Source: Clostridia bacterium (lineage in GTDB: Bacteria; Bacillota; Clostridia; Christensenellales; Pumilibacteraceae). Taken from it: a DNA stretch of 44,203 nt. Below the pieces are notes generated by a model. It was not told where the DNA came from. It ran no database searches and saw only the letters and a list, made by a program, of their open reading frames with translations. Location: assembly GCA_017501145.1 (NCBI GenBank), contig JAFVXL010000076.1, positions 1-44,203 on the forward strand, in the 5' to 3' direction. This document shows, piece after piece, positions 6,076-44,203 of this stretch. Numbering within the stretch: the first letter of the stretch is position 1; each line of letters opens with the position of its first letter. The translations under genes and the position numbers were made by a program.

Positions 6076-7035
6076 ATGAAAACCGAGAAGAATATTTTAT
6101 TTGCATTTTTGCTCAACCTTGCCTTTTCGATATTCGAATTCGTAGGCGGAATTTTTACAGGTAGCGTTGCGATTTTGTCAGATTCTATTCACGATATTGG
6201 AGATGCTTTTAGCATAGGCGTTTCATTTTTCCTTGAGAAAAAATCAAAAAAACAGCCTGACGCAAAGCACACGTATGGATACGCAAGGTATTCGGTCATT
6301 GGTAGCGTAATTACCACCTTGGTTTTGCTCGTAGGCTCGGTTATAGTCACATACAATGCAGTTATTAGAATTATAAATCCTAGTGATATTAACTATGACG
6401 GTATGATAATATTTGCCGTTGTTGGTGTTTGCGTCAACTTCTTTGCCGCTCTATTGACTCGTGAGGGCGATTCGCTCAATCAAAAAGCGGTTAATCTGCA
6501 TATGCTCGAAGACGTATTAGGCTGGATTATCGTCCTTATTGGCGCAATCGTTATGAGATTTACCGATTTTGCTATTTTAGACCCTATTATGTCCATAGGA
6601 CTTGCAATATTTATCTTTGTCAATGCGTTTAGAAATCTAAAGGAAGCAACCGACCTATTCCTCGAAAAAACTCCCCGTGATGTTGACGTAAACGAGCTAA
6701 AGGAGCAAATTAACAGTATCGAAGGCGTAATTGACACGCATCATATTCACGTATGGAGCATGGACGGCATAAGCAATTACGCAACCATGCATATCGTAAC
6801 TAACGAAAACCCTCAATCACTAAAGCAAAAGGTTCGCGCCAAGCTACTTCAATACGGTATTTGTCACGTTACGCTTGAGCTTGAATCAGAAGAAGACCGT
6901 TGTCACGAGGATCATTGTCACGTAGAATTTGCTTCCCACGGCCACCATCATCACCATCATCACGGTCACAAGCATAAGCATAAACACGAGCACAATCACA
7001 ACCACGAACATAACCACGAGCACGAGCATAAATAA
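6076..7035 (+). CDS. Cation diffusion facilitator (CDF) zinc-type exporter with His-rich tail
   Basis: A 319-residue CDF/ZitB/CzcD-like transporter that exports Zn2+ or a related divalent cation in exchange for protons. About six membrane helices fill residues 8-200. The metal-site motif DSIHDIGDAFSIG is in helix 2 and HMLEDVLGW in helix 5. A cytoplasmic domain (VDVNELKEQINSIEGVIDTHHIHVWSMDG) follows. The last 33 residues are an extreme run of His alternating with Lys, Glu and Asn, likely a metal-chelating tail. The ribosome site GGAGA lies before the ATG at 6076. Regulation by the divergent TetR protein is inferred from the two operators. Confidence 0.93.
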   Translation: MKTEKNILFAFLLNLAFSIFEFVGGIFTGSVAILSDSIHDIGDAFSIGVSFFLEKKSKKQPDAKHTYGYARYSVIGSVITTLVLLVGSVIVTYNAVIRIINPSDINYDGMIIFAVVGVCVNFFAALLTREGDSLNQKAVNLHMLEDVLGWIIVLIGAIVMRFTDFAILDPIMSIGLAIFIFVNAFRNLKEATDLFLEKTPRDVDVNELKEQINSIEGVIDTHHIHVWSMDGISNYATMHIVTNENPQSLKQKVRAKLLQYGICHVTLELESEEDRCHEDHCHVEFASHGHHHHHHHGHKHKHKHEHNHNHEHNHEHEHK

Positions 7036-7041
7036 ATGCTT

Positions 7042-7086
7042 AACAAAAAAAGAGATTGGCTACAAAGTCCAATCTCTTTTTTTGTT
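7042..7086. terminator. Bidirectional terminator between CDF exporter and pyrB
   Basis: A perfect 18-bp stem (7042-7059 / 7069-7086) with a 9-nt loop, flanked by A and T runs so it works for both convergent transcripts. Confidence 0.9.
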
Positions 7087-7107
7087 AAAATCTATTGTGG
7101 CGAAAAA

Positions 7108-8166
7108 TTATTGCTTATCGCAATACACACAGCGGTACACTCCGTCCTCACTTTTTTTATAAACGTGGTCAAGCTCTTGCTCAACGGCAGAAATGCACTT
7201 AGGGTTAGAGCACTTATATTCGTTAACTACGCCTTTTATGGGCTCAACGGGCTGTCCATCGCTATGTGAAAGCAAGTACATAATAAGCGCCATACGGATA
7301 AACTTGCCGTTTAATGCTTGTCTAAAGTAGCAAGCACGCTCGTCCGCATCCACCTTGACGCTGATTTCGTTAACTCTCGGCAATGGATGCAAAATTCTCA
7401 TATCTTTTTTTGCCGGAACGAGCTTTTCGGGAGTAAGGATATAGCTGTCCTTAAGACGCTCGTACTCGTCCTTGTCCGCAAAACGCTCACGTTGAATTCT
7501 CGTCATATACAAGATATCAAACTTGTCTATATGCTCACTCAAATCGCTAGTTTCGATAAACTCCGCCTTACCCTTAGCGTCATTTTTTACATAAGCAGGA
7601 ACCTTAAGCTCGTCGGGCGAAACAAGAATAAACTTGTTACCCTCGTATCTAGACATAGCCGCGATAAGAGAATGCACAGTTCTACCGTACTTTAAGTCGC
7701 CTACTATACCTATCGTAAGTCCGCTAAGCGTTCCTTTTTCGCGATATATGGTCAACAAGTCGGTAAGCGTTTGAGTAGGATGATGGTGTCCGCCGTCACC
7801 CGCATTTATTACGGGTATAGTCGCATTGAGCGACGCTACGTACGGCGCGCCCTCTACGGGAGAGCGCATAGCTATAATATCAGCGTAGCAGCTTATAATC
7901 TTAGCCGTATCCGCTATGCTTTCGCCCTTAGCGGCTGACGAGCTATTAGCTTCTGAAAAGCCTATTACGCTACCGCCAAGCTCTAACATTGCAGCCTCAA
8001 AGCTAAGACGTGTTCTGGTGCTAGGCTCAAAAAACAATGTTGCAAGCTTTTTGCCACGGCATTGCGATGCATACTTTTGCGGATTTTGCGCGATATCAAC
8101 ACCTACCTTGATAAGCTCGTCAAGCTCAGAAACGGAAAAATCAAGAATGTCAATAAGATTTCTCAT
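7108..8166 (-). CDS. pyrB: Aspartate carbamoyltransferase PyrB with a fused PyrI-type zinc domain
   Basis: A 352-residue protein that makes carbamoyl-aspartate. Residues 1 to about 305 are a complete catalytic chain: FFEPSTRTR (carbamoyl phosphate loop), [19 protein letters not shown] and HPLPRVNEI are all present. About 45 residues follow, carrying C319-x4-C324-x21-C346-x2-C349. That spacing and the context CSNPKCIS...CVYC match the zinc-binding end of the regulatory chain PyrI, whose E. coli form has C-x4-C-x23-C-x2-C. The nucleotide-binding part of PyrI is missing. It is the last gene of the pyr operon, starting 2 nt after the pyrE stop and without a clear ribosome site, so translation is probably coupled to pyrE. 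Confidence 0.94.
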
Positions 8167-24606: not shown

Positions 24607-25836
24607 TTATGTTACATCAGCATTAATTTTGTATTCTACTTGCACATTTTTTACGATTTCGTCTTTTGAAGCGTAAAATTTGTACTGAGTATACTGCTGC
24701 TTATAAAAAGCGTTTTGTATTCCCAAAATATCTGCGTCAAATTTGCGACTTAGCTCGAGCGCTTCTTCTATTTCGGACTGCATAATCTGCCTAATCTTGT
24801 CGGCTATAGCTTCTTTCACTTCTTTTTGACTTATATTCTTACCCACCTTGGATATGTTAAAGCTCGTTTCTATCTCAAGCATTACATCTATCTCTGCCGT
24901 TATAATCGGCTTGCCCTCACGGAATTCAGCCTTGAGCACACCGCGCTTTTTTCGCACTTGCATAGGTACGTACGAAATAACGTCTTCTCCCACCTTAACG
25001 TCTGACACCTCCAAATAGCCTTTGTTGCTTTTTTCATCAAAAATGCTTATTCCCTTCGTGCCTTTTTCTGAAATTTTACCAACAGCAATTCCGTTCTTAT
25101 AAACCATAGACATATTAAGCTCTTTGAGCTCAGGACTCTCGTTTTCACTTTGCTCAGAGCTTGTTGAGCCTTGTCCGCTATTTCCGCTACTGTTTTGACT
25201 TTCGCCCGAATCGTATCCTCCTTGACTACCGTCCCCTTCTTGAATTTCGAAATCAATAAGCGGCAGCGTGGACGCGTTGGACGGCAAATTGTTTTCGGCT
25301 AAGAAGGTAAGCGCGGTAACTGTACGCAAGTTTATAGACTTTTCGGAAAATTTTACTACGTCAAATATTGCCGAGCCGTTGGTTTGCGAAAATTTGTTGA
25401 GCGTGCTCATAAAATCCTCCGCGTTTCCTTCGCAGTTAAAGATTGTTATTTGCGGCGATATCATACCGCCGGCTAGCAAATAGTTTAGATCGTCGACGAA
25501 CCCCTTATGCGCCATATCCTCGCCGATAATAATTATACCACAATGCGCAAGCTCTATTTCTTGACCAATTTTTATCGAAAGCTTTTCGAACGCTTCGGCA
25601 ATATTATTACCCTCCTCTTCAACAACAAGCAGCTTAGAAGAGCCTTGCGCCATTTGCTGCGGTATGTTCATTTGTACGAATATTTGCGTACTCTCCCCCT
25701 GCTTATCGAATGCTATCACGTTAACAGCCGTCTTAGTTTCAAGACTAGGCGAATCCTCAAGCGGAAACAACGCTATTAAGGCTGCAAACGCAAGAACGAT
25801 AATTTTAATCAGTAGGCTTTTACGTTTGTATGTCAT
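24607..25836 (-). CDS. Germinant receptor subunit GerC-type, without lipobox cysteine
   Basis: A 409-residue Ger(x)C-family protein, third gene of a gerA-type operon. After a basic start, residues 8-25 are hydrophobic, followed by LEDSPSLETKTAVNVIAFD, and then the family features QIFVQMNIPQQMAQG, KIGQEIELAHCGIIIIGEDMA, and the C-terminal domain EIDVMLEIETSFNISKVG. GerC proteins are normally lipoproteins with a C-W-D start of the mature chain; here no Cys lies near the N-terminus, so it would be held by an uncleaved helix or released. Residues ~200-235 form a Ser/Gly/Glu-rich insertion. It overlaps gerB by 17 nt. Confidence 0.88.
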   Translation of the reverse strand: MTYKRKSLLIKIIVLAFAALIALFPLEDSPSLETKTAVNVIAFDKQGESTQIFVQMNIPQQMAQGSSKLLVVEEEGNNIAEAFEKLSIKIGQEIELAHCGIIIIGEDMAHKGFVDDLNYLLAGGMISPQITIFNCEGNAEDFMSTLNKFSQTNGSAIFDVVKFSEKSINLRTVTALTFLAENNLPSNASTLPLIDFEIQEGDGSQGGYDSGESQNSSGNSGQGSTSSEQSENESPELKELNMSMVYKNGIAVGKISEKGTKGISIFDEKSNKGYLEVSDVKVGEDVISYVPMQVRKKRGVLKAEFREGKPIITAEIDVMLEIETSFNISKVGKNISQKEVKEAIADKIRQIMQSEIEEALELSRKFDADILGIQNAFYKQQYTQYKFYASKDEIVKNVQVEYKINADVT

Positions 25837-26923
25837 TTTTCTTTTCTCTACTCCTATTGATAAGTGATATAATCAGCACCATCGCTGGCAAAATGATTTG
25901 GATAACAAGACACAGCCACCTTGTTACTCCTGTTCCAAGCGCAAGCAGCTCACTCTTGCTGTTAAAAAATATTTGGCAAAGCACAAACAGCGCAATAGCT
26001 ACCACAATTGCCCATACAGTATCGCTACCCTTCTCTATCACGCTACCAAAAAATGACACTATCGCATAAAAGCTTACGGCAATTTGCACAAAAATAGATA
26101 TCATCCATATGCAAAATATAGGAATATCAAAACGTCCGAATAGATAACTGCCCGAAGAATAAACAATCATATTGCTTATATTATGACCGTAGTCAATAAT
26201 AATAGGATAATCCCCGTATGCTGCGAACAAGACTATAGCAAAGTACATAACGATTATTCCTGATATTGTGCCGGTGAGCATTCCCTTTAGTATAAACCTT
26301 TTCCTAACCTTGATTTTTCCGGTAAAAATTAGTAGCACCGCAACGTCGCCAAACCATATGGGAAACTTACTCATAGTAAATGCTATTTCTTGCATATTAA
26401 ACGATAAAGGCGTAAGTCCGTCAAGCTTAAGATTGCCCACCGTAAGCAAAAACAGTATAAGCAACGCTCCAAGCACAAACGGAAAAAATATTTGCGCCAT
26501 TCTGGCTATTGGCCTTAAACCCTTACTCGAAAAAATCACGAGCAAAACCAAAAGCGCTATAAAGCAAACGACAAAGTCTATACTTTTTAGCATGCTCGAA
26601 TTAAAAAACAACTCCAGCTCTCCGCACATTATTATAAGCTTGACAAACAATAACGCAGCAAAAATAAGCAAAATTCCCTTTGCCACAACCTTACCAAGCG
26701 CGCCTACCAGTATGTCATAAACTGATTTGTCCGGATTTAGCTTAATGATAAAAAGAATTGCAAGTAGTACAATAAGCTCAATTACAACAAACGTAAGCAT
26801 GCTTATCCATCCGTCCCTACCAGCATGCTTTATCAAAAGTCCGGGCACCATAAAAATTTTTAGCGCCATAACTGCTATAAAAACAAAAACCGAAAGCTGA
26901 CTCGAATCTATTTCTTTTCGCAT
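25820..26923 (-). CDS. Germinant receptor subunit GerB (APC-type spore germination transporter)
   Basis: A 367-residue integral membrane protein with about ten helices, of the GerAB/YndE spore-germination family within the APC superfamily, which binds the germinant in the inner spore membrane. Typical features: IDSSQLSVFVFIAVMALKIF at the start, GWISMLT, and PIARMAQIFFPFVLGALLIL in mid-protein. It starts inside the 3' end of gerA (16-nt overlap) and ends inside the start of gerC, so the three subunits are translationally linked. Confidence 0.9.
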   Translation of the reverse strand: MRKEIDSSQLSVFVFIAVMALKIFMVPGLLIKHAGRDGWISMLTFVVIELIVLLAILFIIKLNPDKSVYDILVGALGKVVAKGILLIFAALLFVKLIIMCGELELFFNSSMLKSIDFVVCFIALLVLLVIFSSKGLRPIARMAQIFFPFVLGALLILFLLTVGNLKLDGLTPLSFNMQEIAFTMSKFPIWFGDVAVLLIFTGKIKVRKRFILKGMLTGTISGIIVMYFAIVLFAAYGDYPIIIDYGHNISNMIVYSSGSYLFGRFDIPIFCIWMISIFVQIAVSFYAIVSFFGSVIEKGSDTVWAIVVAIALFVLCQIFFNSKSELLALGTGVTRWLCLVIQIILPAMVLIISLINRSREKKNDIQT

Positions 26924-28332
26924 ATGTCTTCTCCCTGCCTTACGTTATTTATATTTGGTATAGACTTTGGTCTTGTACTAAGCGTTGGTATGGGCGCTCT
27001 AATAAGAGCATCCTTAAGGTCGTCACGTACAAGCGGCGCAAACGGCGCGGTGTACGACACACCAAAGCTATCCATGCTACACATCAAATGCACGAAGTAC
27101 ATTGCCGAAATAATAAGTCCAAAAAAGCCAAAAAAACCTCCCATCAATATAAGAATAATTCTAATAAGACTCATAGTTCCTACTTCGTTGGGTACGGTAT
27201 AAAGCGATATTGAGCTTAGCGCAACAACCATTACGGCAGGAGAGCTGATAATACCCGCGTTTACTGCCGTTTCTCCAAGCACAAGCGCGCCCACAATACT
27301 CATTGCCATACCGACGGCGCGTGGCATACGTACGCTTGCTTCTCTAATAATTTCAAACAGCAACAGCACGAACAATATTTCGGGCAATGGCGGCAATGGA
27401 ATTCCTTCGATAGCGTTCATTAACGTCGTCAAAAATCTTACGGGAATAACTTCTTGATGGAACATTTGGATTGCGACAAAAATACCGGGGAGCGCTACTC
27501 CAAAAAATAGAGATATTAGGCGCATTATCCGCAAAAAGGTCGAAAAAGCATTTCGCTCGTAATAATCCTCGCTGCTTTGCAAATCCTCTACAAACATAAA
27601 CGGCACGGTTAGTACCATTGGGGAGCCATCCACTATAAGCGCAACTCTACCCTCGAGCAGCTTAGCACAAACAACGTCTGGCTTTTCGCTTACACCCGAT
27701 TGATGAAATATCGAAAATGGGTGATCTTCGAGAAGCGGCTGAAGGTAGTGACTGTCTATAAGACAGTCTATATCTATCTTATTTAACCTTTTGCGCACCT
27801 CGTCTATTAGCTGTGGCGACGCTATTGTCGAAATATAAACAAGCGCCACCGTTGTAGAGCTTACTCGCCCTACACGGCACTTTTCGATTCCAAGCGCAGG
27901 TGTGCGCAATCGCCTTTGAATAAGCCCAAGATTGGTCTTAAGATCCTCTATAAAGCCCTCTCTTGGTCCTCTCATTACCGTTTCGGTGGGTGGCTCGGCT
28001 ACGCTACGCTTGTCATATTTTCGAACGTTTATCTTCAAAACGCTTTCTCTCGCAAACAACAGAGCGTCGCCACTAAGCATACACTCTATACCCTCCGCCT
28101 CGTCGTCAATAATGTCCGCTTCGGACACATGCAATATAGCGTTTTTAATTTCCTCAGGCGAGGACGCCGTTCCACCAAACCGTTGAAGCGACTTTATAAC
28201 GCTACGCAACGCCAAAGGGTCTGTAAGCTCTGGACTAAACAAAAGCTTATAGACGGCTTTTTCTACCTTTATATCACGCACTGCAATATTATTTTGAGTT
28301 GCAAATTGACTTAATATTTTTTCCGCATTCAT
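26908..28332 (-). CDS. Germinant receptor subunit GerA
   Basis: A 474-residue GerA-family protein. The N-terminal cytoplasmic domain includes GPREGFIEDLKTNLGLIQRRLRTP, RKRLNKIDIDCLIDSHYLQ and the P-loop-free EGRVALIVDGSPMVLTVP; four to five membrane helices follow with RLISLFFGVALPGIFVA, LFEIIREASVRMPRA and GETAVNAGIISSPAVMVV. It is the large subunit of the receptor that triggers spore germination. I start at the ATG at 28332; the frame is open further upstream but through the promoter region. No Shine-Dalgarno sequence is present. First gene of gerA-gerB-gerC. Confidence 0.93.
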   Translation of the reverse strand: MNAEKILSQFATQNNIAVRDIKVEKAVYKLLFSPELTDPLALRSVIKSLQRFGGTASSPEEIKNAILHVSEADIIDDEAEGIECMLSGDALLFARESVLKINVRKYDKRSVAEPPTETVMRGPREGFIEDLKTNLGLIQRRLRTPALGIEKCRVGRVSSTTVALVYISTIASPQLIDEVRKRLNKIDIDCLIDSHYLQPLLEDHPFSIFHQSGVSEKPDVVCAKLLEGRVALIVDGSPMVLTVPFMFVEDLQSSEDYYERNAFSTFLRIMRLISLFFGVALPGIFVAIQMFHQEVIPVRFLTTLMNAIEGIPLPPLPEILFVLLLFEIIREASVRMPRAVGMAMSIVGALVLGETAVNAGIISSPAVMVVALSSISLYTVPNEVGTMSLIRIILILMGGFFGFFGLIISAMYFVHLMCSMDSFGVSYTAPFAPLVRDDLKDALIRAPIPTLSTRPKSIPNINNVRQGEDICEKK

Positions 28333-28341
28333 ATACAAGCA

Positions 28342-28371
28342 TATTATGCGTAATATATTTAGGTAAAATTC
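28342..28371 (-). promoter_or_regulatory. Sigma-G-like promoter of the ger operon
   Basis: GAATT (28371-28367), 18 bp, CATAATA (28348-28342). The -10 fits the forespore pattern CATnHTA fully and the -35 fits GHATR at four of five positions. Only 9 nt separate the -10 from the gerA ATG, so the leader would be absent or very short. B. subtilis gerA operons are sigma-G controlled, which supports the reading. Confidence 0.5.
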
Positions 28372-28402
28372 GCATATATCTCTTTTGGATAATGAATTTA
28401 GC

Positions 28403-28439
28403 AAAAAAACAGTCCTAAGCATAATAGCTTAAGACTGTT
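28403..28439 (-). terminator. Terminator of the spoIIQ-like gene
   Basis: AACAGTCTTAAGC pairs with GCTTAGGACTGTT (13 bp with one G-U) around a 6-nt loop, followed by T7 on the minus strand. It isolates spoIIQ from the ger operon. Confidence 0.88.
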
Positions 28440-30503: not shown

Positions 30504-32009
30504 TTATTTAGTTAGTCTTCTAAAGCAAATAATACGTTCGCCGCCGACAAGCGGAAAGCTTAACTCGGGGTTTTGCTCCATTACCGTTTCGGGACTGACG
30601 CAAAAAGCCTTAGCCACATCCCAAAGCGTTTCCCTCTTGCTCGCAATATGCATAGAAATAGCACTTTGCGGAGCTATTACTTCTGCTCCTAACGCAAGAT
30701 CGGTTATTATGTTAAATTTTACATCTTCACTTATGCAAACGCTAAATCTCACGTCAGCTCTTACGTCAATTTCGTTGCCGCGTCGAATTTTGATGTTGAT
30801 GCCGAGCACCTCCGCAGTAGCAAAAACCCTGTCGTTTTCACTTGCCTCCATCGGCTTATTTACCGAGAACGGCAACTCAACGGTAACCGAATTGCACGAA
30901 TTGGATTCTCCGCTAAAGTATACTACGTTAGAGCGAAGCAATCCTTCTATAACCACCTTGCCGTTAGTTGCGTACACCGAAGAAATTATTACCGAGCTAC
31001 CTATGGGCGTCACGATATTATCTACTATAGGAAGCCCTGCTTCTAAGGTTACACTGCCATCTATCTCATCTGCAAAGCACGCACACGTCTTAACTAAACC
31101 GCAGCTTACAGCTTCTTCTTGCTTAACAAGCTCATTTTTGACCGAAAAAGCATCTGCAACGCAGTCAAGCGTGCGATTTTCGTACGCATAACCAATTGCG
31201 CTTATAGAATAATTGATTATAACGGTGTTTTCTTCGCCTTCTATGATATTTGCGTTAGATGAGCTTATTCTCAAGGTTGCTACCGCTTCGCTTCCGCTTA
31301 TCGCGCCTGTAGCTTCCACCTCAAACACAAACGGTGTACTAAGCGAAACGTGTCCTATCCCGCCTTCGCCCCTATAAACGACGTCGCTAATCACTTCGCC
31401 CTCTATTACTACTATATCGGTAGATGATGTAATTTTCGTAGTAGCAATACGGCTTTCGAAGCACTCAATATATTTTGCGCTGACAGAAGATTCTGCAGTT
31501 ATTGAGCAGTTGCCCGTAAAGCCAGAAAGCACCTTGGTGTATTTAGCCTTATGCTCATAAGCGTGCACACCGTCTCCACCCTTTACAAGATACTTAATGC
31601 GCTTGGTTACTTGACCAAAAAGCTCTACCTCCACTACTGCTGCAAGTCGAATTTCGCTAGCCGAAGCCGAAACAATATCGGTATCCAAAACCTTAGCGTT
31701 CACACACGGATTGCCGCCCGCAATTTCGTCACCAACCATCTTGTCAGTAAATTCAACGGTACTAACTAAGCATCTATTTTCACCGTTTGTATTCGCGTAC
31801 AAAACCTTAAAGTCAACCTTACCCTTGATGCGCGCCTCGCCCGCAAACACTTCGGTCGTAACCACGTCGGCAATAGACGACACGCCTAAGATTTTAGTAA
31901 TTTCTTCGCCATGCGTCGGCACGAGCTTGGATTCTACCGCTACCTGCGCAGAACAAAGCTTGGTCAAGCCATCCAAAACCGCGACCTCATAAATAGGTTC
32001 AAACGACAT
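30504..32009 (-). CDS. sipL: SipL-like spore coat/cortex morphogenesis protein (SPOCS repeats + LysM)
   Basis: A 501-residue protein with repeated beta-rich SPOCS (DUF3794) modules: EVFAGEARIKGKVDFKVLY near residue 55, IVVIEGEVISDVVYRGE near 200, and NGKVVIEGLLRSNVVYFSGE near 345 are equivalent points of successive modules. The C-terminal ~50 residues are a LysM domain (KRETLWDVAKAFCVSPETVM, PLVGGERIICFR). This is the architecture of C. difficile SipL, which binds SpoIVA through LysM and ties the coat to the forespore. GGAGG stands 7 nt before the ATG. No SpoIVA gene is in the window. Confidence 0.85.
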   Translation of the reverse strand: MSFEPIYEVAVLDGLTKLCSAQVAVESKLVPTHGEEITKILGVSSIADVVTTEVFAGEARIKGKVDFKVLYANTNGENRCLVSTVEFTDKMVGDEIAGGNPCVNAKVLDTDIVSASASEIRLAAVVEVELFGQVTKRIKYLVKGGDGVHAYEHKAKYTKVLSGFTGNCSITAESSVSAKYIECFESRIATTKITSSTDIVVIEGEVISDVVYRGEGGIGHVSLSTPFVFEVEATGAISGSEAVATLRISSSNANIIEGEENTVIINYSISAIGYAYENRTLDCVADAFSVKNELVKQEEAVSCGLVKTCACFADEIDGSVTLEAGLPIVDNIVTPIGSSVIISSVYATNGKVVIEGLLRSNVVYFSGESNSCNSVTVELPFSVNKPMEASENDRVFATAEVLGINIKIRRGNEIDVRADVRFSVCISEDVKFNIITDLALGAEVIAPQSAISMHIASKRETLWDVAKAFCVSPETVMEQNPELSFPLVGGERIICFRRLTK

Positions 32010-32737: not shown

Positions 32738-33283
32738 ATGGAAAAGAAAAACGTTTACGAAGGCACTCAAACCGAAAAGAACTTGTTAGCTGCATTTGCA
32801 GGAGAATCGCAAGCTCGCAACAAATATACATATTTTGCTTCCGCAGCTAAGAAGGAAGGCTATGAGCAAATCGCAGCGCTCTTCCTCAAAACCGCTGACA
32901 ACGAAAAGGAACACGCAAAATTGTGGTTCAAGGAGCTTAAGGGTATTGGCAACACCGCCGAAAATCTTCAAGCTGCCGCAGAAGGTGAAAACTACGAGTG
33001 GACAGATATGTACGAGGGCTTTGCAAAGACCGCTGAAGAAGAAGGATTTAAGGCTCTTGCTGCTAAGTTCCGTATGGTTGCCGCTATCGAAAAGCGTCAC
33101 GAGGAGCGTTATAGAGCATTGCTCAAAAACGTAGAAACTGCCGAAGTATTCAAAAAGAGCAGCGTTAAGATTTGGGAGTGCCGCAACTGCGGACATATCG
33201 TTGTTGGCGAGTCTGCACCCCTTGCGTGCCCGACCTGCGCTCATCCGCAAAGCTACTTCGAAATTATGGAAGAGAACTATTAA
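32738..33283 (+). CDS. rbr: Rubrerythrin
   Basis: A 181-residue non-heme iron protein that reduces hydrogen peroxide in anaerobes. The N-terminal ferritin-like four-helix domain carries the diiron ligands in [31 protein letters not shown] and [11 protein letters not shown]. The C-terminal rubredoxin-like domain has CRNCGH and [19 protein letters not shown] precedes the ATG. Two hairpin terminators follow. Single-gene unit. Confidence 0.96.
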
Positions 33284-33360: not shown

Positions 33361-33398
33361 CAAAACAAAAAGCCGCTTGTTAGCGGCTTTTTGTTTTG
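33361..33398. terminator. Second, bidirectional hairpin terminator downstream of rubrerythrin
   Basis: A perfect 16-bp stem, CAAAACAAAAAGCCGC and its complement, with loop TTGTTA. It could back up the first terminator or stop transcripts entering from the right. Confidence 0.75.
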
Positions 33399-33480
33399 TT
33401 AGAGCTGTACGCTATTCGATGCGGAAACGGCAAGACACAGGTTAGGGGTGGCTTTTTGAAAAAAAGTGGCAAAAACGGAC

Positions 33481-33509
33481 TTGACAAGGCTTTTAAGGTG
33501 TGTTATACT
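33481..33509 (+). promoter_or_regulatory. Sigma-A promoter of the candidate small RNA
   Basis: TTGACA (33481-33486), 17 bp, TATACT (33504-33509). No plus-strand protein gene follows for more than 8 kb; the next thing downstream is the structured RNA region and then T8. Confidence 0.8.
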
Positions 33510-33514
33510 AATAA

Positions 33515-33633
33515 GCGTAAGGAAGTTAGCTTATATCTCTTTGATAATTAAAATTATGTAATAGATAATTTTAATAACTATGAGGATGATTGAGAGTGTG
33601 TTCATAGTTTAGGTTAACCTCCTTATTTTTTTT
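33515..33633 (+). ncRNA. Candidate structured small RNA (about 119 nt)
   Basis: From the predicted start near 33515 to a T8 tract (33626-33633) the sequence folds as a three-way arrangement. P1: AAGGAAGTTAGC (33519-33530) pairs with GTTAACCTCCTT (33613-33624), 11 of 12 positions. P2: an 11-bp AU stem, 33547-33557 with 33565-33575. P3: AACTATGA (33576-33583) with TCATAGTT (33602-33609), 8 bp, directly abutting P2. P1 ends one base before the T tract, so it doubles as the terminator stem. The 3' strand contains CCUCCUU, the anti-Shine-Dalgarno sequence. It does not look like 6S, SRP, tmRNA or RNase P RNA. Function unknown. Confidence 0.6.
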
Positions 33634-33808
33634 ATACAAAAAACACGAAATAAAAGACGTGTCAAGTTAGGGGAGATTAACGAAAAAGACAGTATGTAAA
33701 AATACTGCCTTTTTTTATACGTAAGTATTATTTATTAGCTTTTTGAATCATGTAATTAAGCTCATTTTCATCTATTTCTTGAAAATTTTCGCCTAAGTAT
33801 TTTTTTTG
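33634..33808. other. Intergenic stretch between the small RNA and the DtxR/MntR gene
   Basis: It contains a hairpin terminator (33683-33716). On the minus strand, directly in frame after the TAA stop of the DtxR/MntR gene, runs a 25-codon open stretch (KKYLGENFQEIDENELNYMI, then QKANK and stop) without its own start codon near its beginning. This may be chance or a remnant of a longer protein. Nothing else is recognisable. Confidence 0.4.
33683..33716. terminator. Hairpin terminator downstream of the DtxR/MntR gene
   Basis: AAAAAG-A-CAGTAT pairs with ATACTG-C-CTTTTT, one mismatch, with A and T runs on both sides. Likely ends the metK operon on the minus strand. Confidence 0.65.
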
Positions 33809-34174
33809 TTACTTTTGCTCTACGTACTTTTTAATTATATCAAACAGCTCCTTTGAAATAACGTGCTCTATTCGGCAAGCGTTATCCTCTGCAAGCACCT
33901 GATCTGCGCCAAACGAAACAAGCAGCTTAGTAATGATATCGTGGCGCTCATAAATATCCTTTGCCTTGCTCAGTCCACTGTCCGAAAGCGAAATAACTCC
34001 GCTTTTGTCAATATCTATGTAGCCCTTAGTAAGCAATAAATTAACTGCTCGAGATACGCTTGACTTTGCATATCCAAGCTCGTTTGCTACGTCAACAGCA
34101 TGTACGTTGTGACTTGCCTTCTTCAAAATGTAAATGGTTTCAAGATACATTTCTTCCGATTCACGAACTTTCAT
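33809..34174 (-). CDS. DtxR/MntR-family metal-dependent transcriptional regulator
   Basis: A 121-residue winged-helix regulator with a C-terminal dimerisation segment. Visible: MKVRESEEMYLETIYILKKA at the start, HTH VANELGYAKSSVSRAVNLL, wing GYIDIDKSGVISLSDSG, and metal-site segments ERHDIITKLL and DACRIEHVIS-like DNACRIEHVIS. This is the short clostridial type without an SH3-like domain, sensing Fe2+ or Mn2+. It is the last gene of the metK-to-alaS operon, 18 nt after alaS. Confidence 0.88.
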   Translation of the reverse strand: MKVRESEEMYLETIYILKKASHNVHAVDVANELGYAKSSVSRAVNLLLTKGYIDIDKSGVISLSDSGLSKAKDIYERHDIITKLLVSFGADQVLAEDNACRIEHVISKELFDIIKKYVEQK

Positions 34175-44181: not shown

Positions 44182-44203
44182 TAAAGGAGGTGATCCAGCC
44201 GCA
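44182..44203 (-). rRNA. 16S ribosomal RNA, extreme 3' end (cut by window edge)
   Basis: The last 22 bases read on the minus strand TGCGGCTGGATCACCTCCTT, followed by T and A: the universal 3' end of 16S rRNA with the anti-Shine-Dalgarno sequence. The remainder lies beyond the window. The CCUCCUU agrees with the AAGGAGG-type ribosome sites of the genes here. Confidence 0.95.

What the first reader, a model, noticed from the sequence alone, without database searches (positions are those of the whole stretch)
33481..33633. Candidate novel structured small RNA with perfect transcription signals
A promoter (TTGACA-N17-TATACT) on the plus strand leads into no protein gene but into about 119 nt that fold as a closed three-way arrangement: an 11-of-12 closing stem joining the 5' end to the 3' end, an 11-bp hairpin and an 8-bp hairpin directly abutting, then T8 one base after the closing stem. 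The 3' strand of P1 carries CCUCCUU, the same as the 16S anti-Shine-Dalgarno, so if P1 opened the RNA could pair with ribosome sites of mRNAs. It does not resemble 6S, SRP, tmRNA or RNase P RNA as I know them.
Basis: partly seen in the sequence, partly recalled or inferred. Interest (0 to 1): 0.66.

Follow-up and report, generated by a model that had tools for sequence, protein, structure and literature searches.

The report
Sib-like antisense RNA opposite toxin-like peptide
The small folded RNA looks real, but it is probably the antisense 'antitoxin' of a tiny greasy peptide gene hidden on the opposite DNA strand, a self-poisoning switch built like the Ibs/Sib pairs of E. coli but in an unrelated, unnamed Clostridia-like bacterium.

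Summary
A strong promoter leads into a ~118-nt RNA (33516-33633 +) that folds far better than chance (z -5.8), ends in U8, matches no Rfam family, and is single-copy. It is absent from 7 congeners, and no relative was found in over 800 order- and class-level genomes. The reading 'structured sRNA with an anti-SD' misses the other strand. The CCUCCUU is the complement of a real Shine-Dalgarno (AAGGAGG, 33624-33618 -). It precedes a 24-codon ORF, MNTLSIILIVIKIIYYIILIIKEI (33605-33531 -), nested wholly inside the RNA. This is the only SD-preceded 15-60-codon ORF in the 44-kb window. No hydrophobic equivalent arose in 20,000 dinucleotide shuffles or 200,000 structure-preserving ones. In the toxin-strand RNA the SD is locked by the same P1 helix. 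E. coli SibA/B/C, computed side by side, show the same plan: nested hydrophobic ORF, P1 tying the sRNA start to the SD complement, three enclosed hairpins, the last covering the start codon. Best explanation: a type I toxin-antitoxin pair that works like Ibs/Sib. It is not a sequence member of that family. Weak points: no homologues, a long SD-ATG spacing (12 nt), and a minus-strand promoter with a 23-nt spacer. Expression and toxicity are untested.

The parts
33481..33509 (+). Promoter of the sRNA: TTGACA-N17-TATACT with TG two bases before the -10
33516..33633 (+). Small structured RNA, proposed antitoxin (antisense RNA), about 118 nt including U8
   Evidence: fold z -5.8; start inferred from -10 position; no transcript data
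33517..33533 (+). 5' strand of closing stem P1 (33517-33523 and 33525-33533)
33610..33626 (+). 3' strand of P1, contains CCUCCUU; followed at once by U8, so P1 is also the terminator stem
33534..33546 (+). 4-bp hairpin in the junction
33547..33575 (+). 11-bp hairpin, complement of the middle of the ORF
33576..33609 (+). Hairpin whose 3' arm is the complement of the toxin start codon
33618..33624 (-). Shine-Dalgarno AAGGAGG of the nested ORF; 12 nt before ATG
33531..33605 (-). ORF MNTLSIILIVIKIIYYIILIIKEI (24 aa, mean Kyte-Doolittle 2.0), proposed type I toxin
33518..33528 (-). Anti-SD stretch UAACUUCCUUA just after the stop codon; pairs with UAAGGAGGUUA in the toxin-strand RNA
   Evidence: fold of the minus strand
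33631..33665 (-). Promoter-like elements TTGACA (33665-33660) and TATAAA (33636-33631) but with a 23-nt spacer; sequence context resembles other promoters of the lineage
33361..33398 (-). 17-bp perfect hairpin with flanking A and T runs, likely 3' end of the toxin transcript (terminator usable on both strands)
32738..33283 (+). Rubrerythrin gene, left neighbour (conserved)
33809..34174 (-). MntR-like regulator gene, right neighbour (conserved)

Best explanation
A type I toxin-antitoxin pair built on the Ibs/Sib plan. The plus-strand RNA (33516-33633) is a constitutively made, tightly folded antisense RNA that covers the whole ribosome-binding site and coding region of a 24-residue hydrophobic peptide encoded on the minus strand (33605-33531). 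The RNAs meet through complementary hairpin loops and then pair fully; this hides the SD and start codon and would mark the duplex for RNase III. The toxin transcript is also self-silenced: its SD (UAAGGAGGUUA) pairs with UAACUUCCUUA right after the stop codon, the mirror image of P1. While it is being made, a short AGG-UUAA-CCU hairpin can mask part of the SD. If the antisense RNA is lost, the peptide would be made and inserted into the membrane. Shown here: sequence anatomy, fold statistics, ORF/SD statistics, and the likeness to computed Sib RNAs. Inferred: transcription of both strands, translation, toxicity, repression.
For: The SD-ORF is the only ATG ORF of 15-60 codons behind a 6-base SD in 44 kb, both strands. 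Dinucleotide shuffles give such an ORF in 0.015% and a hydrophobic one in 0 of 20,000. Shuffled ORF bodies have mean hydropathy 0.16 +/- 0.54 against 2.0 observed. A null that keeps the RNA fold gives 12 SD-ORFs and 0 hydrophobic ones in 200,000. 268,740 bases of fetched relatives' DNA contain no SD-ORF of 15-60 codons with hydropathy of 1.5 or more. SD, ORF and stop all lie inside the RNA's span. The minus-strand fold locks the SD in an 11-bp helix with an anti-SD after the stop (z -6.9), and a non-translatable primary transcript with an occluded SD is named a hallmark of type I loci (PMC6733600). E. coli SibA/B/C, run through the same scripts, have the same plan: 136-144 nt, nested ORF of 18-19 aa with hydropathy 1.98-2.44, P1 pairing the sRNA start with the SD complement, three enclosed hairpins, the last covering the ATG. 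Sib covers the whole ibs ORF and RBS (PMC4147584). The unit has its own terminator-like hairpin on the toxin strand.
Against: No homologue of RNA or peptide in the genus, family, order or class samples, phages or plasmids, so no evolutionary test of the ORF or the pairing is possible. The SD-ATG distance is 11-13 nt by hexamer, against 4-9 for most SD-preceded genes in the window. The minus-strand promoter has a 23-nt spacer where relatives' DNA peaks at 17, so the toxin may be barely or not transcribed. The peptide is not more like IbsA, B or C than its own composition gives, and matches no Pfam or NCBIfam model. The ORF test was chosen after seeing the sequence. No expression data.
Confidence: 0.7

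Rival explanations
1. A trans-acting regulatory small RNA without a cis partner: an orphan intergenic sRNA whose loops, or C-rich P1 strand when opened, pair with distant mRNAs; the ORF on the other strand is chance.
For: Strong promoter, start exactly at P1, terminator, fold z -5.8. The plus strand folds better than the minus (-33.6 against -23.4 kcal/mol; six G-U pairs in the plus fold against one in the minus fold), so structure on the plus strand is favoured.
Against: Leaves the perfect SD, the nested hydrophobic ORF and the SD-locking mirror helix to chance, which the nulls put at below 1 in 10,000. CCUCCUU is buried in a 16-bp stem that is also the terminator.
Confidence: 0.15
2. A small mobile or palindromic element (MITE-like) whose inverted repeats happen to carry promoters; fold and nested ORF follow from its palindromic build.
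For: Promoter contexts at both ends form an inverted repeat (33479-33504 / 33642-33667, 77%), continuous with P1; the gapped arm alignment was reached in 1 of 2000 shuffles. The 525-nt gap here is about 124 nt in two congeners, so something was gained or lost.
Against: Single copy in the genome, no copies in relatives, no target-site duplication seen at the repeat ends. ACTTGACAnG-CTTTTA is a recurring promoter motif of this family of bacteria, which explains the outer similarity.
Confidence: 0.08
3. A remnant: a type I pair whose toxin promoter is already broken (23-nt spacer), so only the antisense RNA is still made.
For: The minus promoter looks like a relative's good promoter (ACTTGACACGTCTATTATTTTTGTGTATAAT in L101) with about seven extra bases TTTTTTG before the -10.
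Against: ORF, SD, anti-SD pairing and terminators are intact; alternative promoters or sigma factors cannot be excluded.
Confidence: 0.2

Closest known systems
Ibs/Sib type I toxin-antitoxin of E. coli (Rfam RF00113 SIB_RNA)
   Same: Antisense RNA covers SD and whole ORF of a very hydrophobic 18-24 aa peptide; closing stem P1 joins the RNA start with the SD complement; three hairpins inside, the last over the start codon; TTGACA-type promoter; isolated intergenic unit.
   Different: No sequence match to RF00113 or to Ibs beyond composition; P1 here carries the U8 itself, while Sib has a separate terminator hairpin; single copy (five in E. coli MG1655, PMC4147584); SD-ATG spacing longer; different, unrelated lineage.
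Gram-positive type I pairs (bsrG/SR4, txpA/RatA of B. subtilis; CD0977.1/RCd11 and others of C. difficile)
   Same: Small hydrophobic peptide, cis antisense RNA, convergent promoters, independent unit.
   Different: Those described up to the 2014 review overlap the toxin mRNA at 3' ends (PMC4147584), not over the whole ORF and SD; their toxins are 28-60 aa with a charged tail (PMC6563280).
aapA/IsoA of Helicobacter pylori
   Same: Toxin mRNA silenced by SD/anti-SD long-range pairing plus transient SD-masking hairpins (PMC6733600).
   Different: Different peptide; there the stable aSD pairing joins the 5' and 3' ends of the mRNA; no sequence relation tested.
6S RNA
   Same: Long closed stem joining the ends.
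   Different: No central bulge of the 6S kind; the genome has a separate 6S-like match on contig C66.

Membership tests
Type I toxin-antitoxin system | Small hydrophobic peptide ORF with SD | tested here: met
   24 aa, hydropathy 2.0, AAGGAGG; nulls; spacing 12 nt is long
Type I toxin-antitoxin system | Antisense RNA gene with its own promoter and terminator, complementary to the toxin mRNA | tested here: met
   By sequence: promoter, U8 terminator, overlap complete by position; transcription itself not tested
Type I toxin-antitoxin system | Toxin mRNA with its own promoter | tested here: inconclusive
   Consensus -35 and -10 but 23-nt spacer
Type I toxin-antitoxin system | Toxin mRNA with sequestered SD | tested here: met
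   SD paired with anti-SD after the stop codon in the predicted fold
Type I toxin-antitoxin system | Peptide toxic when overproduced, relieved by the RNA | not testable with these tools
   needs an experiment
Ibs/Sib (RF00113) | Match to the RF00113 covariance model | tested here: not met
   No RF00113 hit even at E up to 5; the model finds SibA, B, C in the control loci
Ibs/Sib (RF00113) | Peptide homologous to Ibs | tested here: not met
   Best alignment, to IbsC, reached by 12% of shuffled peptides
Ibs/Sib (RF00113) | sRNA covers SD and whole ORF, P1 at the SD complement, three inner hairpins | tested here: met
6S RNA (RF00013) | RF00013 match | tested here: not met
   No 6S hit at the locus; weak 6S match elsewhere, G000:C66
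MITE-like element | Several copies with terminal repeats and target-site duplications | tested here: not met
   Single copy, none in relatives, no duplication seen

The most novel reading that the evidence does not exclude
A new, lineage-specific type I toxin-antitoxin family in a Clostridia-like lineage that arrived independently at the Sib architecture, compressed so that one helix (P1) serves as SD-complement stem, structural closing stem and transcription terminator of the antitoxin, while its mirror image silences the toxin mRNA.
Probability: 0.45. Interest if true: 0.6.

Novelty: new variant of a known kind. Interest (0 to 1): 0.5.

Why it matters
Type I toxins are too short and too variable to be found by homology. 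This case shows that a strongly folded orphan sRNA can be the visible half of such a pair, and that reading its complement for an SD plus a hydrophobic ORF is a quick and strict test. If it works, it extends the fully overlapping Ibs/Sib plan, known from E. coli, to a Clostridia-like lineage, and suggests that the four-way fold recurs because it solves one problem (hiding SD and start codon on both strands) rather than by descent.

Tried and rejected
6S-like RNA: rejected, a separate 6S-like match exists. Known Rfam family: none. Homologues by blastn, covariance model and patterns: 60 relatives, 74 family, 396 order and 391 class genomes, 84,980 species contigs with a P1 pattern, viral contigs, phages, plasmids: none. 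The two pattern hits are chance: one lies in an Abiotrophia coding region, the other is an unrelated palindrome. The one covariance-model hit in the class, L093, is an unrelated near-perfect hairpin of about 120 nt with no sequence likeness. The promoter hit in G008 is only a shared promoter motif upstream of a LacI-like regulator gene. Conserved synteny as a source of homologues: the rubrerythrin/MntR gap exists in G002 and G005 but holds no RNA. MITE reading: not supported. Protein homology of the peptide to Ibs: not above composition. Leader/attenuator reading: no plus-strand gene follows the terminator in the window's next stretch.

Full report
Observation. The promoter, RNA and fold described are in the sequence. 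TTGACA-17-TATACT scores 11 of 12. The stretch 33516-33633 folds at -33.6 kcal/mol with z -5.8 and stands among the few outliers of 8,818 windows after GC correction. The best fold is a closing stem P1 (7 + 9 bp around one A-C mismatch) that encloses three hairpins, not two: a 4-bp one, an 11-bp one and a 9 + 3 bp one. T8 follows P1 directly, so P1 is also the terminator stem. No Rfam family matches.

Surroundings. The window is contig C54 of a 1.13-Mb draft genome, 88% complete. The RNA lies between the 3' ends of a rubrerythrin gene and an MntR-like regulator gene. In two congeners (G002, G005) the same two genes converge with a gap of about 124 nt and no such RNA; here the gap is 525 nt. The unit is set apart by a perfect 17-bp terminator-like hairpin on the left (33361-33398) and a terminator-like hairpin on the MntR side (about 33683-33714).

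Conservation. blastn in 60 relatives and the covariance model in 74 family, 396 order and 391 class genomes find no homologue. A gapped P1 pattern over 84,980 species finds only chance matches. Viral contigs, phages and plasmids are negative. It is an orphan, so compensating changes cannot be tested.

The other strand. Twelve bases later an ATG opens a 24-codon frame, MNTLSIILIVIKIIYYIILIIKEI, that ends at 33531; SD and ORF lie inside the complement of the RNA. In the whole window this is the only ATG ORF of 15-60 codons behind a 6-base SD. Dinucleotide shuffles give an SD-ORF in 0.015% and a hydrophobic one never in 20,000. Shuffles that keep every base pair of the plus fold give 12 SD-ORFs and no hydrophobic one in 200,000. 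268,740 bases of fetched relatives' DNA hold none as hydrophobic. The thresholds were set after seeing the ORF, but the margin is wide.

The toxin-strand RNA folds with its SD in an 11-bp helix with UAACUUCCUUA just past the stop codon, and the nascent 5' end can form AGG-UUAA-CCU over part of the SD. SD masking by anti-SD sequences, both transient and stable, is described for type I toxin mRNAs, and the untranslatable primary transcript is called a hallmark of these loci (PMC6733600).

Comparison with Sib. The annotated SibA, SibB and SibC of E. coli K-12 were fetched and treated alike. Each is 136-144 nt, covers an opposite ORF of 18-19 aa with hydropathy 1.98-2.44, and folds with a P1 that ties the RNA start to the complement of the SD and encloses three hairpins, the last over the start codon. 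The candidate has the same order of elements. It differs in that P1 carries the U tract itself, in sequence, in copy number and in SD spacing. RF00113 finds the Sib RNAs but not the candidate, and the peptide is not more Ibs-like than its composition. It works like Ibs/Sib; it is not filed as a member. [quoted passage not shown]

Weak points. The SD-ATG distance (11-13 nt by hexamer) exceeds the 4-9 of most SD-preceded genes in the window. The minus-strand promoter has perfect TTGACA and a TATAAA in a lineage-typical context (compare L101) but with 23 nt between them, where 17 is the norm. The toxin could be weakly expressed by design, controlled by another sigma factor, or already silenced; the last is kept as a rival. 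The inverted similarity of the two promoter contexts raised a MITE-like reading, but the motif recurs as an ordinary promoter in this bacterial family and no further copies exist.

Verdict. The best explanation is a type I toxin-antitoxin pair on the Ibs/Sib plan (0.7). Transcription, translation and toxicity remain to be shown. The rival confidences overlap in part, because a silenced remnant would still be of type I toxin-antitoxin origin.

Noticed in passing
window 44184-44203: The contig ends in the 3' end of a 16S rRNA gene on the minus strand (AAAGGAGGTGATCCAGCCGCA), so the assembly breaks at the rRNA operon and the genome keeps a standard anti-SD.
   Followed up: no
window 33479-33504 and 33642-33667: Promoter contexts of the two strands form a 26-nt inverted repeat (77%); ACTTGACAnG-CTTTTA recurs as a promoter motif across the family.
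   Followed up: yes
G000:C66:6432-6632 (L083): 6S RNA of this genus scores mostly just below the Rfam cut-off (37-48 bits against 46.4), so annotation pipelines would miss it in 6 of 8 genomes.
   Followed up: no
L093 1480-1640 (G773): A near-perfect long hairpin between genes, containing GGGGACGGAGCAAAAAATCATCATTGATT, looks like a MITE or repeat element.
   Followed up: no
window 24607-28422 and 30504-32009: Spore germination (GerA/B/C type) and SipL/SPOCS genes in a genome of only 1.1 Mb draft size.
   Followed up: no
window 7000-7153: Another outlying fold on both strands in the window scan (residual about -4 sd), probably a terminator between convergent genes.
   Followed up: no
L110 and L111 (E. 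coli K-12 sibA, sibB, sibC): RefSeq coordinates of the Sib RNAs start about 36 nt downstream of the start of the Rfam RF00113 match.
   Followed up: no
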